DNA of 51,103 nt, from assembly GCA_903943955.1 (NCBI GenBank), contig CAJAPZ010000030.1, positions 1 to 51,103 of the forward strand, given 5' to 3'. The notes beneath the pieces were generated by a model. It saw only the letters and a list, made by a program, of their open reading frames with translations. It made no database searches and was not told where the DNA came from. The translations under genes were made by a program, and so were the position numbers. The DNA comes from an uncultured Actinomycetes bacterium (GTDB lineage: Bacteria > Actinomycetota > Thermoleophilia > Miltoncostaeales > Miltoncostaeaceae). This document shows positions 1 to 50,158 of this stretch, piece after piece; position 1 is the first letter of the stretch, and the number at the start of each line of letters is the position of its first letter.

Positions 1-35
1 GGGGTCAGTCGCTGTGTCAGAAGTGTGCGAAAGGA
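1..35 (-). repeat. Partial copy of dispersed TGACCCC/TCTGTCAC repeat
   Basis: Positions 1-35 match the reverse strand of 47178-47212 at about 31 of 35 positions, including the GGGGTCAGTCGCTGTG core. Seen directly by comparison within the window. It directly precedes the first gene and supplies the sequence around its ribosome-binding site. The element is probably cut by the window edge. Confidence 0.7.
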
Positions 36-46275: not shown

Positions 46276-47070
46276 CTACGGGCGCAGCCGCGTACCCCGG
46301 TGGAACATCCTGATGGCCAGCAGTGTGAGCACCCCGGCCACCACGGCAGCCACCGCCACGCTGAGCCACACGGCGCTCTCATGCGTGCCGGTCACCCCTC
46401 CCCGCTCGGCATCCACCAGGTAGTAGATGGGGTCGAGCAGGGTGAGGGTGCGCCATGGTTCCGACAGCATGTCGACCGAGTAGAAGACCCCACCGAGCAG
46501 GGCGAGCGGCGAGATGATCAGCGCAGCGACAAATGCCTGCTGGTCGAAGGAGTCGGCCCAGATTCCGGTCATCACACCAAGGGCGCTGAAGATGACGCCG
46601 GTGAGGATGAGCACCACGATCGCCAGCAGCCAGTTCTCCACCCCGGGCACGAACGGCAGACCGCAGGCGGCAACCAACACGGCGGAGATCCATCCCCGGT
46701 AGAGCCCGCCCGACATGTACGACCACACCACCTCCGCAGGCCGAAGCGGTGAGGTGAGCACGTCATCGATGTACCCCTCGTTGCGCGCCTGGTACAGGCT
46801 GGTGGACGCGTTGGCGAAGGCCTGCCCGGCCACGGTCATCACCAGCAGGCCGGGGAGGATGAACCACAGGTACGGGATGTCGGCGACATCGCGCAACTTG
46901 CCCCCGAGCGCCCCACCGAAAACCACCATGAAGAGCACGGCCCCGACAACCGGAGGCAGGATCGTCTGCGTCCACAGCTTGGAAACCCGCCGGACCTCTC
47001 GGCCGGAAAGCGCAAGGGTCCCACGGCGGGACGCGGCACGAAGCTGCGCGCGTTGATCCTGTTCTGTCAC
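46276..47070 (-). CDS. ABC-2 type transporter permease (DrrB/NodJ-like)
   Basis: A 264-residue permease with six hydrophobic segments (TILPPVVGAVLFMVVFGG, IPYLWFILPGLLVMTVAG, and four more). It has the ABC-2 motif ASTSLYQARNEGYIDDVLTSPLRPAE between segments two and three, as in daunorubicin-type exporters. The GTG 47070 start lies inside a dispersed repeat element: GTGACAGAA is part of the repeated box. A degenerate copy of the first 30 codons follows 128 bases upstream. It partners with the ATPase gene upstream on the same strand; the substrate is unknown. Confidence 0.85.
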   Translation of the reverse strand: MTEQDQRAQLRAASRRGTLALSGREVRRVSKLWTQTILPPVVGAVLFMVVFGGALGGKLRDVADIPYLWFILPGLLVMTVAGQAFANASTSLYQARNEGYIDDVLTSPLRPAEVVWSYMSGGLYRGWISAVLVAACGLPFVPGVENWLLAIVVLILTGVIFSALGVMTGIWADSFDQQAFVAALIISPLALLGGVFYSVDMLSEPWRTLTLLDPIYYLVDAERGGVTGTHESAVWLSVAVAAVVAGVLTLLAIRMFHRGTRLRP

Positions 47071-47127
47071 GGTGACTGACCCCCAGAGGGGCCTAAACAA
47101 GCGGGGGGCCTGACCCCGGAAAGGACC
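47009..47127 (-). repeat. Repeat copy A: duplicated gene start plus 17-bp units
   Basis: Positions 47009-47094 resemble 47137-47222 (offset 128) at roughly 75-80% by eye. They contain the TTCTGTCAC-GGTGACTGAC box (47062-47080) and then three 17-bp units starting at 47077, 47094 and 47111. Confidence 0.75.
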
Positions 47128-47136
47128 CATTCGCCC

Positions 47137-47271
47137 AGCGCAAGGGCTCCCCAGACGGACGCGGCACAAAGTCGCGCGCTTTCACCCATTTCTGTCACAG
47201 CGACTGACCCCCAACGGGGTCTGACCCCATGGGGGGACTGACCCCGGGGGGGGACTGACCCCGGGCTTCGC
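47137..47271 (-). repeat. Repeat copy B: box plus 17-bp TGACCCC tandem array
   Basis: A second copy of the box (47190-47208), followed by TGACCCC at 47205, 47222, 47239 and 47256, an exact 17-base period. The unit junctions form palindromes such as GGGGTCTGACCCC. The array lies inside the 3' end of the ATPase gene. Confidence 0.85.
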
Positions 47272-48037
47272 GGTTTTCCTGCATCGCTGCCATGTAGGCG
47301 TCCTCCAGACGGGCAGCGCCGAAGCGGCTCATGATCTCCGGGACCGTTCCCTCCACAATGATGCGGCCCTCGCGAATCATCGCGATGTCCCCGCAGAGGG
47401 CCTCGGCCTCCTCCAGGTAATGCGTGGTGAGCAGCACCGTGGTGCCCTCCTCCCTGTGGATGCGCGACAGGTACTGCCACAGGTCATGGCGCAGCTCCAG
47501 GTCAACACCGGCAGTGGGCTCGTCGAGGATGGCCAGGCGGGGGCGGTGCACCAGAGCGCGCGCGATGAGCAGGCGGCGGCGCATGCCACCCGACAGCCGA
47601 TTCGGCCGGCTTCCCGCCTTGTTCTCCAGATCGAAGCTGACGAGCAACTCGTCGGCGCGCTCGATGGCGTCGGCCTTGCTCATGCCGAAGTACCGGCCGT
47701 GAAACGACAGGACATCACGCGCTGTGAGGAAGCGGTCGAGATGCACCTCCTGCGGGGCGAGCCCCACCATGGTGCGCGCCAGGCGGTGATCGCTCACCGC
47801 GTCGTGCCCGAACACCTTCACATGCCCGGCAGGTCCGCGCACCAGCCCGGTGATGATGCCGATGAGGGTGCTCTTGCCCGACCCGTTTGGCCCGAGCAGG
47901 CCGTGGAACCCACCCGCCGGCACCGTGAGCGAGAGATCGTCGAGGGCAAGTGTGCCGTCGTCGTACACCTTGGTGAGACCCGTGATCTCGAGCGCGGGAG
48001 GCCCTGCCGCAACGTCGTTGGAGGTGGTGATTGGCAC
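47195..48037 (-). CDS. ABC transporter ATP-binding protein (DrrA/NodI-like)
   Basis: A 280-residue ATPase with Walker A GPNGSGKST, signature LSGGMRRRLLIARAL, Walker B LAILDEPTAGVD and switch His in LLTTHYLEEAEALC, the form typical of drug and polysaccharide exporters. Normal homology ends near EIMSRFGAARLEDAYMAAM. The last about 22 residues (GQSPPGVSPPMGSDPVGGQ...) are encoded by the 17-bp repeat array, and the stop codon is in the repeat box, so the C-terminus is secondary. GTG 48037 is leaderless (TACGGT ends seven bases upstream); ATG 48058 is an alternative. The permease gene follows. Confidence 0.88.
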   Translation of the reverse strand: MPITTSNDVAAGPPALEITGLTKVYDDGTLALDDLSLTVPAGGFHGLLGPNGSGKSTLIGIITGLVRGPAGHVKVFGHDAVSDHRLARTMVGLAPQEVHLDRFLTARDVLSFHGRYFGMSKADAIERADELLVSFDLENKAGSRPNRLSGGMRRRLLIARALVHRPRLAILDEPTAGVDLELRHDLWQYLSRIHREEGTTVLLTTHYLEEAEALCGDIAMIREGRIIVEGTVPEIMSRFGAARLEDAYMAAMQENREARGQSPPGVSPPMGSDPVGGQSL

Positions 48038-48050
48038 GTGGCGCACCGTA
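48038..48050 (-). promoter_or_regulatory. Leaderless promoter of ABC exporter operon
   Basis: TACGGT on the minus strand (48045-48050) ends seven bases before GTG 48037. Confidence 0.5.
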
Positions 48051-48108
48051 GCCGTCATCCATGGCCGAATGGGAGGAGCACGGCCCCGGCAGCCGTGGGC
48101 GCGATGGG

Positions 48109-48121
48109 TAGAGTGGCCTCG
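48109..48121 (+). promoter_or_regulatory. Leaderless promoter of purD
   Basis: TAGAGT (48109-48114) ends six bases before GTG 48121. The context GGTAGAGTGGCC is nearly repeated before purB (GGTAGGGTGGCC). Confidence 0.65.
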
Positions 48122-49389
48122 TGGCGCGCCGAGCACTCGTGGTGGGGAGTGGAGGACGCGAGCACGCGCTGGTGCGCGCGCTCGCGAGGACTGGTTGGAC
48201 GGTTTTCGCGGCACCGGGCAACCCGGGCATTGCGACCATCGCCGACACCCGCCCCATCGACATGCATGACCACGCAGGCATGGTGGATCTGGTGCTGGGC
48301 GAGGACATCGACCTGGTGATCATCGGCCCCGAGGCCCCGCTCGTGGCGGGTCTGGCCGACGTGCTTCGCGTCGCTGGTGTTGCAGTGCTTGGCCCGTCCG
48401 CCGAGGCCGCGCGCCTTGAGGGCAGCAAGGCATTCGCCAAGGAAATCATGCTGGCCTCCGGCGTCCCCACAGCGCGGTCAATGACCGTGACCGATGTGGA
48501 CTCAGGGATGGCGGCCGTGGCCGACTACGGCACGCCCGTCGCCATCAAGGCCGATGGACTGGCCGCGGGCAAGGGCGTTGTCATCGCACAGGACGAGGCC
48601 GAGGCCCGTGCTGCGTTGGTGATGATGCTCGAGGATGCGGTGTTCGGCGATGCCGGCCTCACCGTGCTGGTGGAGGAGGGTCTCGTGGGCCCGGAGGTGT
48701 CGCTCCTGGCCATCAGCGACGGCGTGGCGGTGGCACGCTTCCCGGCTGCCCGCGACTACAAGCCGATCGGCGAGGGCAACACCGGCCCCAATACCGGCGG
48801 CATGGGATCGGTCTCCCCCATCCCCGACATCCCCGACCACCTGGCCGACGAGCTGGTGGAGACCGTGCATCGGCCCGTCATCCGCGAGATGCACCGCCGT
48901 GGCATTCCGTTCAATGGTGTGCTGTACGCGGGCATCATGATGACCCCGAGCGGCCCCAAGGTGTTGGAGTTCAACGTGCGGTTTGGTGACCCCGAGACCC
49001 AGGCTCTGCTGCCCCGGGTGGAGGGCGACCTGGGGGACATCCTGCTGGCCGCGGCCAGCGGTGGGCTGGCCGACTCGCCTGTGACGGTGAGCGGCGAGGC
49101 GTCGGTGGCAGTGGTGCTGGCCGCCGCCAACTACCCGGGCGACCCGCGAACGGGTGATGTGATCTCCGGCATCGACGATGCCATGGCCACGGGGGCCGAT
49201 GTGTTTCAGGCCGGAACGGCGCTGAACGCCGAGGGCGAGCTGGTGACCGCCGGCGGCCGTGTGCTCGCAGTGCAGGCCCGGGGCGTGACGGTGGAGATCG
49301 CGCGTGAGCGCGCCTACGCCGGTGCGGATCTGGTCAACTTCGACGGCAAGCAGATGCGACGTGACATCGCCGCAGGGATGGACGCCTAG
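48121..49389 (+). CDS. purD: Phosphoribosylamine-glycine ligase PurD
   Basis: The 422-residue ATP-grasp enzyme of purine synthesis, making GAR from phosphoribosylamine and glycine. The N-domain opens LVVGSGGREHALVRAL; IIGPEAPLVAGLAD, the ATP-grasp segment IKADGLAAGKGVVIA, NTGGMGSVSP, and the Mg-binding EFNVRFGDPETQ signature are intact. GTG 48121 is leaderless, with no Shine-Dalgarno. Upstream and divergent is the ABC exporter; downstream is a toxin-antitoxin pair, and then purB. Confidence 0.96.
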   Translation: MARRALVVGSGGREHALVRALARTGWTVFAAPGNPGIATIADTRPIDMHDHAGMVDLVLGEDIDLVIIGPEAPLVAGLADVLRVAGVAVLGPSAEAARLEGSKAFAKEIMLASGVPTARSMTVTDVDSGMAAVADYGTPVAIKADGLAAGKGVVIAQDEAEARAALVMMLEDAVFGDAGLTVLVEEGLVGPEVSLLAISDGVAVARFPAARDYKPIGEGNTGPNTGGMGSVSPIPDIPDHLADELVETVHRPVIREMHRRGIPFNGVLYAGIMMTPSGPKVLEFNVRFGDPETQALLPRVEGDLGDILLAAASGGLADSPVTVSGEASVAVVLAAANYPGDPRTGDVISGIDDAMATGADVFQAGTALNAEGELVTAGGRVLAVQARGVTVEIARERAYAGADLVNFDGKQMRRDIAAGMDA

Positions 49390-49439
49390 TCGACGCGATT
49401 TCGTCGCAGTCCGTGACGAAGGCGGGTGTTGCACGGTGT

Positions 49440-49452
49440 TACACTTCGGCGA
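49440..49452 (+). promoter_or_regulatory. Leaderless promoter of second toxin-antitoxin pair
   Basis: TACACT (49440-49445) ends six bases before ATG 49452. GTGTTGCACGGTGTTACAC just upstream contains imperfect repeats that could be an operator. Confidence 0.5.
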
Positions 49453-49730
49453 TGCCGACGACCAAGCCCCGCCATGCAGTGACCGAGACCGGTGCCGTTG
49501 CCGAGGCCCTCGCTGAACTGCGGGCCGAGCCCGGTGGCGACGACGTATCGATTTCGGAGTTGGTGGTGATCGGCGCCAAGGCGCTGGCTGCAAAGAAGCG
49601 AGCGCAGCGCCAGGCCAATAAGGAGATGCTCGAGATTGTTGCCGCGAGGGTGCGGGCGGGCGGGCAGCCCTTCGTCGACCCGGAGGCCGCGGACGAGGTC
49701 CGGCGGTCTGGCTGGGTTCGACCTACGTGA
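49452..49730 (+). CDS. Probable antitoxin of VapBC-type pair
   Basis: A 92-residue protein without a recognised DNA-binding motif, though the N-terminal half (AVAEALAELRAEPGGDDVSISELVVIGAKALAAKKRAQR) looks like a small helical or ribbon-helix-helix-like domain. The C-terminal part (PFVDPEAADEVRRSGW) would bind the toxin. The antitoxin call rests on size, its own promoter and the four-base overlap (GTGA) with a PIN-domain gene. The start ATG 49452 is set by a -10 box six bases upstream. Confidence 0.7.
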   Translation: MPTTKPRHAVTETGAVAEALAELRAEPGGDDVSISELVVIGAKALAAKKRAQRQANKEMLEIVAARVRAGGQPFVDPEAADEVRRSGWVRPT

Positions 49731-50158
49731 CAACCGAGTACTTGCTGGACAACTCGGCCTGGGCGCGCCTTCGGCATCCTGCGCTGCCAACTGCGCGCCG
49801 TGACGACATCGCCGATGCCATCGCGGACAGCCGCGTGTACACGTGCCTGCCCTTCCTGCTCGAGGCCGGGTACTCCGCCAGGAACGCCGAGCAGTACACG
49901 GAGATGATGCGCCACCTGCGTGGCTTCCCATTCGCCGCGCTGGACGATGCCGCTGCGCTGCGCGCCCTCGCTCTTCAGGGCGACCTCGCCGCGTGCGGGC
50001 ACCCCCGCCTGCCACCGCCAGACCTCATCATCGCGGCCATTGCCGAGCGCCACGCGCTTACCGTGCTGCACTGCGACAAGGACTTCGACGTAATCCGCGA
50101 CAAGACGTCGGCAGTGATCAGCGCCGAGTGGCTGGCACCCCCCGACACCTTCTCGTGA
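49727..50158 (+). CDS. PIN-domain ribonuclease toxin, VapC-like
   Basis: A 143-residue PIN-domain protein with acidic active-site residues Asp8 (YLLDNSAWARL), Glu46 (FLLEAGYS), Asp99 (LPPPDLIIAAIAERH) and Asp117/Asp119 (LHCDKDFDVI). The YLLDNSAWAR opening is typical of the mycobacterial-type VapC group. A Mg-dependent RNase toxin is expected. GTG 49727 overlaps the antitoxin stop by four bases. The sequence is not close to the other VapC at 25110-25523, so the pairs are probably independent. Confidence 0.85.
   Translation: MTTEYLLDNSAWARLRHPALPTARRDDIADAIADSRVYTCLPFLLEAGYSARNAEQYTEMMRHLRGFPFAALDDAAALRALALQGDLAACGHPRLPPPDLIIAAIAERHALTVLHCDKDFDVIRDKTSAVISAEWLAPPDTFS

What the first reader, a model, noticed from the sequence alone, without database searches (positions are those of the whole stretch)
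47009..47271. Dispersed repeat with 17-bp TGACCCC units and a near-palindromic box, three copies in the window
TGACCCC occurs at 47205, 47222, 47239 and 47256 (exact 17-base period), and related units start at 47077, 47094 and 47111. Each array abuts a box of form TTCTGTCAC-N-G-N-GACTGAC, close to a palindrome, and a third box opens the window (1-35, about 31/35 matching the reverse strand). Palindromic GGGGTC-N-GACCCC junctions resemble REP-type elements moved by Y1 (RAYT) transposases, but no such transposase is in the window. A genome-wide, possibly mobile repeat family is inferred.
Basis: partly seen in the sequence, partly recalled or inferred. Interest (0 to 1): 0.62.

Follow-up and report, generated by a model that had tools for sequence, protein, structure and literature searches.

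The report
Transposase-linked palindromic repeat arrays, lake actinobacterium
The odd 17-base repeats in this bacterial genome are one site of a genome-wide family of tiny, probably mobile palindromes that bracket their own single-strand transposase gene, and sister species carry differently spelled versions, sometimes at the very same sites.

Summary
47009-47271 carries two head-to-tail copies of one element: 13-bp palindromes GGGGTCAG(A/T)CCCC at 17-bp pitch, ending in a conserved foot GGGGTCAGTCGCYGTSACAAAwGTG. The box occurs 58 times in the 2.0-Mb genome (reversed-pattern control: 1), mostly between genes. Many copies break contigs, including window position 1.

The genome has a RAYT/Y1 transposase (NCBIfam REP_Tyr_transpos, over cut-off) with the same arrays on both sides. 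That ~0.9-kb unit is absent from the same site in 12 congeners.

In other species of the genus the same transposase lineage is bracketed by a different 13-mer (GGTGCCWGRCACC or GGTGACWGTCACC), and the abundant 13-mer is species-specific. Lineages with different 13-mers share repeat sites roughly 4-7 times more often than random placement would give; the window site is one.

Best reading: a REP-like non-autonomous family mobilised by its cognate RAYT, nearer the published TIRYT/"GGGGWSAS" group than classical GTAG REPs. REP switching at syntenic RAYTs ("orthoswitch") is already published in gammaproteobacteria. New here: head-to-tail 17-bp architecture, uncultured Actinomycetota, shared sites. 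Cleavage and movement are inferred, not shown.

The parts
47183..47211 (-). Box 1: terminal half-palindrome plus conserved foot (GGGGTCAGTCGCTGTGACAGAAATGGGTG on the minus strand). Its TGA (47197-47195) is the stop codon of the ABC ATPase ORF.
47216..47262 (-). Array 1: three 13-bp palindromic units (47216-47228, 47233-47245, 47250-47262) at 17-bp pitch
47055..47083 (-). Box 2: terminal half-palindrome plus foot. The GTG at 47070-47068 is the likely start codon of the ABC-2 permease.
   Evidence: start inferred from alignment with congeners
47088..47117 (-). Array 2: one unit GGGGCCTGACCCC (47105-47117) and one decayed unit GGGGCCTAAACAA (47088-47100), 17-bp pitch
47009..47119 (.). First copy of the 111-bp tandem duplication; 47009-47060 is permease 5' coding sequence
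47137..47247 (.). Second copy of the duplication (77%); shared by G000, G002, G003 and G017, absent in G009
1..29 (+). Third box (GGGGTCAGTCGCTGTGTCAGAAGTGTGCG) at the very start of the contig; the array upstream of it was lost at the assembly break
47195..48214 (-). ABC ATPase gene; its C-terminal tail RGQSPPGVSPPMGSDPVGGQSL is encoded by array 1 plus box 1
46276..47070 (-). ABC-2 type permease gene that follows the repeat

Best explanation
The finding is one site of a REP-like, non-autonomous repeat family whose cognate enzyme is RAYT-A, a Y1/HUH single-strand transposase encoded elsewhere in the same genome. The element is one to several 13-bp palindromes (GGGGTCAG[A/T]CCCC) at 17-bp pitch, closed on one side by a conserved foot. 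Inferred mechanism: when the strand is single (for example on the lagging-strand template) the palindromes fold into short hairpins. RAYT-A recognises the hairpin, cuts and rejoins the strand beside it, and so copies or moves the palindrome to gene junctions. Recombination or slippage between identical units adds 17-bp units and larger head-to-tail duplications. Over evolution the palindrome beside the RAYT changes and the new spelling spreads, giving species-specific families. Shown: anatomy, copy number, RAYT bracketing, the inserted RAYT unit versus empty sites, species-specific 13-mers, and the intact HUH and Tyr residues. Inferred: hairpin recognition, cleavage, transposition, and the direction of the switch.
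For: 58 boxes and about 130 or more 13-mers in the genome against near-zero controls. RAYT-A bracketed by the arrays in G000 and in its 97% orthologue in G017. RAYT-A passes the NCBIfam REP_Tyr_transpos cut-off, 81.4 vs 80 bits, is Pfam Y1_Tnp, and its best solved relative is TnpAREP 4er8, E 0.0027. HUH H60/H62 and Y119 are invariant in 31 relatives. The RAYT unit is absent at the same site in 12 congeners. RAYT-A orthologues at that same site in G009 and G016 carry GGTGCCWGRCACC on both sides, and their genomes hold 48 and 44 copies of it. G018 carries GGTGACWGTCACC beside its RAYT and 68 genomic copies. The GGGGTC box is abundant only in G000, G002, G003 and G017. Related RAYTs in other families and phyla carry 13-mers of the same GGNGNCWGNCNCC form on both sides.
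Against: No movement was observed: no polymorphic insertion within a species, and no new insertion with both ends resolved. G002 and G003 have the repeat but no RAYT-A was found; the RAYT locus itself is missing from those incomplete assemblies. G013 (61 copies) and G007 (27 copies) have a 13-mer family with no RAYT detected. G014's RAYT carries GGTGACWGTCACC while its commonest genomic 13-mer is GGGGACWGTCCCC. ssDNA folding of the window array is only modestly better than shuffles (z about -2). The RAYT could have been inserted next to a pre-existing repeat.
Confidence: 0.85

Rival explanations
1. The 13-mers are tandem operators or structural sites for a host DNA-binding protein, spread by selection or recombination rather than by the RAYT.
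For: Regular 17-bp pitch, palindromic 13-mers and location at gene junctions also suit arrayed protein-binding sites.
Against: Does not explain why the same 13-mer brackets a RAYT in several species, or why the 13-mer changes with the species while the flanking genes stay the same. The sites sit by unrelated genes.
Confidence: 0.06
2. Local duplication only: a tandem repeat that arose by slippage at this operon junction.
For: 47009-47247 is a tandem duplication that includes host coding sequence.
Against: 58 boxes genome-wide at about 31 places.
Confidence: 0.02
3. A transcriptional or mRNA element (terminator, attenuator or RNA stabiliser) kept for function in RNA, with the RAYT association secondary.
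For: Mostly intergenic, some in operons; GC-rich hairpins are possible.
Against: Stems are 4-5 bp with no T-run; array length varies from 0 to 4 or more units; orientation relative to genes is mixed; congeners lack it altogether at many of the same junctions.
Confidence: 0.05

Closest known systems
TIRYT / TIRtron (TIR-associated tyrosine transposases; Di Nocera et al. 2013, PMC3733652; probably RAYT subclass 2.1 of Quentin et al. 2018, PMC6006769)
   Same: RAYT-like Y1 transposase flanked by repeats not tagged GTAG; the G000 unit GGGGTCAG fits the reported GGGGWSAS motif; TIR families can be dispersed in clusters.
   Different: Units here are short 13-bp palindromes in head-to-tail 17-bp arrays with a one-sided foot. 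No C-terminal HTH domain was detected by Pfam. Sister families (GGTGACAG, GGTGCCAG) break the GGGG start.
Classical REP/REPIN-RAYT systems (REPtrons; E. coli, Pseudomonas, Stenotrophomonas)
   Same: Dispersed intergenic palindromes, one RAYT gene bracketed by its cognate repeat, species-specific sequence.
   Different: No GT[AG]G tetranucleotide at the conserved foot. [quoted passage not shown] The sister species G018 does have inverted doublets.
Orthoswitch of REP classes at syntenic RAYTs (Nunvar et al. 2013, PMC3686654)
   Same: Orthologous RAYTs at the same chromosomal site flanked by different repeat sequences, each expanded in its own genome.
   Different: Reported there for GTAG REPs of fluorescent pseudomonads and stenotrophomonads; here for non-GTAG 13-mers in Actinomycetota, with other repeat sites also shared across the switch.
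IS200/IS605 insertion sequences
   Same: Y1 HUH transposase superfamily.
   Different: RAYT-A matches the REP-associated model and not the IS200 model; it is single-copy with many non-autonomous repeats.

Membership tests
REP-associated tyrosine transposase (RAYT/TnpAREP) | Y1 HUH protein with HxH motif and catalytic Tyr, closer to RAYT than to IS200 | tested here: met
   NF047646 REP_Tyr_transpos 81.4 bits over cut-off 80; 4er8 TnpAREP E 0.0027; H60, H62, Y119 invariant in 31 sequences
REP-associated tyrosine transposase (RAYT/TnpAREP) | Gene flanked by the dispersed repeat of its genome | tested here: met
   different cognate repeats in G009, G016, G018
Classical GTAG REP | Conserved 5' GT[AG]G tetranucleotide at the foot of the hairpin | tested here: not met
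   Conserved foot has no GT[AG]G. GTGG arises where GGGT/GGTG spacers meet the next GGGG stem (42 of 88 strand instances in G000), but in only 2-9 instances per sister genome
Classical GTAG REP / REPIN | Predominantly inverted pairs (REPIN/BIME) | tested here: not met
   In G000 all 15 multi-box clusters have uniform orientation and 31 of 31 orientable neighbouring unit pairs are head-to-tail; G018 units do form inverted doublets at 23 bp
TIRYT / TIRtron | RAYT-like gene flanked by terminal repeats with GGGGWSAS | tested here: met
   GGGGTCAG on both sides of RAYT-A; motif from PMC3733652
RAYT subclass 2.1 (Quentin 2018) | C-terminal HTH-like domain (Bac_DnaA_C, HTH_23 or HTH_28) | tested here: inconclusive
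   Pfam at E up to 1 finds only Y1_Tnp in RAYT-A; no structure predicted; subclass not assigned by tree
RAYT-mobilised repeat | RAYT cleaves and moves the repeat | not testable with these tools
   needs purified protein or an evolving strain

The most novel reading that the evidence does not exclude
Repeat sites persist as inherited addresses while their sequence is overwritten: after the transposase lineage changes specificity, it replaces or adds the new palindrome at sites that already held the old one, so different species carry differently spelled arrays at the same gene junctions.
Probability: 0.25. Interest if true: 0.65.

Novelty: new variant of a known kind. Interest (0 to 1): 0.5.

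Why it matters
One genus gives four or more distinct repeat spellings (GGGGTCAG, GGTGCCAG, GGTGACAG, GGGGACAG), most with related transposases, two of them at the same chromosomal site. That is a natural experiment for how a single-strand transposase and its DNA palindrome change specificity together, and it makes the open question of how the switch happens directly testable with a small panel of proteins and oligonucleotides. It also shows that the non-GTAG, TIRYT-like branch can build genome-wide families, that these can be read through into protein tails (the ABC ATPase here), and that they break metagenome assemblies.

Tried and rejected
Local duplication only: rejected by the genome count. 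A literature search for the exact 13-mers found nothing, and the RAYT/Actinobacteria search gave no relevant paper. My automated test for a palindrome shared by both sides of a RAYT (9 of 77 loci vs 0 of 75 controls) required five perfect pairs. It therefore misses GGGGTCAGTCCCC and GGTGCCAGACACC by design, and at least one of the nine (L180, AT-rich) is probably chance. The apparent match L256/L268 in the site-sharing test is only RAYT protein homology and was discounted. G012's GGGGACTGTCCCC near the window site is ATPase coding sequence common to several species and is not a mosaic repeat. A conserved left end of the array was looked for and not found. No structure was predicted, because the sequence evidence for RAYT was already sufficient.

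Full report
Observation. The coordinates and the 17-base period are right, and shuffled sequence does not reproduce them. Read on the minus strand, the site is array 1 (three units) - box 1 - about 90 bp - array 2 (one good and one decayed unit) - box 2. The two halves are a 111-bp direct repeat at 77% identity, and the outer part of that repeat is the first ~50 bp of the permease gene. So the local pair is a tandem duplication that took host sequence with it. It is shared by four species (G000, G002, G003, G017) and absent from the next relative G009.

Copy number. With up to two mismatches the box occurs 58 times in the genome and its reversed control once. The 13-mer gives 133+129 strand hits against 2+4 for the control. 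At least a dozen contigs begin or end inside an array, including the window contig at base 1, so these are minimum counts for a short-read assembly.

Anatomy. In 51 aligned copies the element reads [GGGGTCAG(A/T)CCCC + 4 nt] repeated, then GGGGTCAGTCGCYGTSACAAAwGTG. The commonest 4-nt spacers are GGGT (40 of about 82) and GGTG (19). No conserved sequence was found at the other end. Foot position 16 and position 22 change together (C with T, 17 copies; G with A, 26 copies), so there are two foot subtypes. All 15 clusters with two or more boxes have the boxes in one orientation, and all 31 orientable neighbouring units point the same way. A coarse ORF call places nearly all clusters between or at the ends of genes. 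At the window site the array is read through: the ABC ATPase ends RGQSPPGVSPPMGSDPVGGQSL-stop, with the stop inside box 1, and the permease most likely starts at the GTG inside box 2.

The transposase. Two Y1_Tnp genes are in the genome. RAYT-A at C128:15998-16648 has four units plus a box upstream and two units plus a box downstream, and its own C-terminus (GVSPHLGSDPGWGQSL) runs into the downstream array. It passes the NCBIfam REP-associated transposase cut-off narrowly, 81.4 vs 80 bits. Its only solved relative by sequence is TnpAREP, 4er8. HUH and Tyr residues are intact in all 31 relatives aligned. In 12 congeners the genes on either side of RAYT-A are separated by only a short gap without RAYT or array. 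The RAYT-plus-array unit is therefore an insertion shared by G000, G017, G009 and G016. RAYT-B (C116), next to a ferredoxin gene, belongs to a separate clade with other repeats.

Species-specific spelling. RAYT-A orthologues at that same site in G009 and G016 are bracketed by GGTGCCWGRCACC. G018's, at another site, is bracketed by GGTGACWGTCACC. Genome counts follow: GGTGYCWGRCACC 48 and 44 in G009 and G016; GGTGACWGTCACC 68 in G018, 61 in G013 and 24-30 in four more; GGGGACWGTCCCC 80 in G014; GGGGTC box 58, 47, 46 and 28 in G000, G003, G017 and G002 and background elsewhere. The RAYT tree puts G000+G017 and G009+G016 as well-supported sister pairs within one clade (100/99 and 99/97; joining node 91/87). 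The spelling therefore changed while the gene stayed in place. Exceptions: G014's RAYT carries a 13-mer that is not its commonest, and G007 and G013 have families without a detected RAYT.

Shared sites. At the window junction ten of the nineteen species examined carry a 13-mer, in at least four spellings; the other nine have none or only degenerate traces. G016 even keeps the 17-bp pitch with another sequence. The G000 site at C72:50.7 kb is the same junction at which G018 holds its RAYT, and at which G014 and G007 hold single palindromes of their own types. Between pairs of lineages with different spellings I count 17 shared junctions (after removing one false match and redundant rows) against about 2.4 expected if about 1600 junctions were equally likely. 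With 1000 usable junctions the expectation is about 4. The counts are not independent (one junction appears in several pairs), the site lists of G018 and G014 were incomplete, and the number of junctions is assumed. The excess is real enough to report but does not separate hot-spot insertion from overwriting of inherited sites.

Comparison with the literature. TIRYTs are RAYT-like transposases flanked by repeats without GTAG, many with the motif GGGGWSAS (PMC3733652); GGGGTCAG fits it. Most of those fall in RAYT subclass 2.1, for which no REP-like sequences were found near the genes (PMC6006769). Different REP classes beside syntenic RAYTs, called orthoswitches, are described for GTAG REPs in pseudomonads and stenotrophomonads (PMC3686654). 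E. coli TnpAREP cuts single-stranded REP in vitro (PMC8266576), which is the basis for the inferred mechanism here.

Verdict. This is a new variant of a known kind: a RAYT/TIRYT-linked palindromic family with head-to-tail 17-bp arrays in an uncultured actinobacterium (nearest named records are freshwater and lake Actinomycetota MAGs). Its genus-wide spellings make it a good test system.

Noticed in passing
window 49413-49730 (+) and 49727-50158 (+): Two small overlapping ORFs; the second has a PIN domain (Pfam E 1.8e-10) and the first has no Pfam match. Possibly a VapBC-like toxin-antitoxin pair next to purD.
   Followed up: partly
L204 (G017:C141), junction at locus base 1501: In G017 about 346 bp of the ABC ATPase gene are missing exactly at the outer end of the array: a repeat-associated deletion or a misassembly.
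   Followed up: no
L031 / G000:C116:1894-2496 and L097-L101, L113-L116: A second RAYT clade (RAYT-B) sits beside a ferredoxin gene in several species, with its own GGTGCCTGTCA/GTCCACAGG repeats; it looks vertically inherited.
   Followed up: partly
G007 and G013: 27 and 61 copies of a 13-mer family in genomes with no RAYT detected: orphan families, perhaps after loss of the transposase.
   Followed up: no
L260-L279 (G018): In G018 neighbouring units are mostly inverted doublets at 23-bp spacing, so architecture as well as sequence differs between sister species.
   Followed up: partly
L124, L150, L166, L190: RAYT relatives in Solirubrobacter and in Clostridia, Nomurabacteria and Bacteroidaceae MAGs carry 12-13-mers of similar form on both sides.
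   Followed up: no
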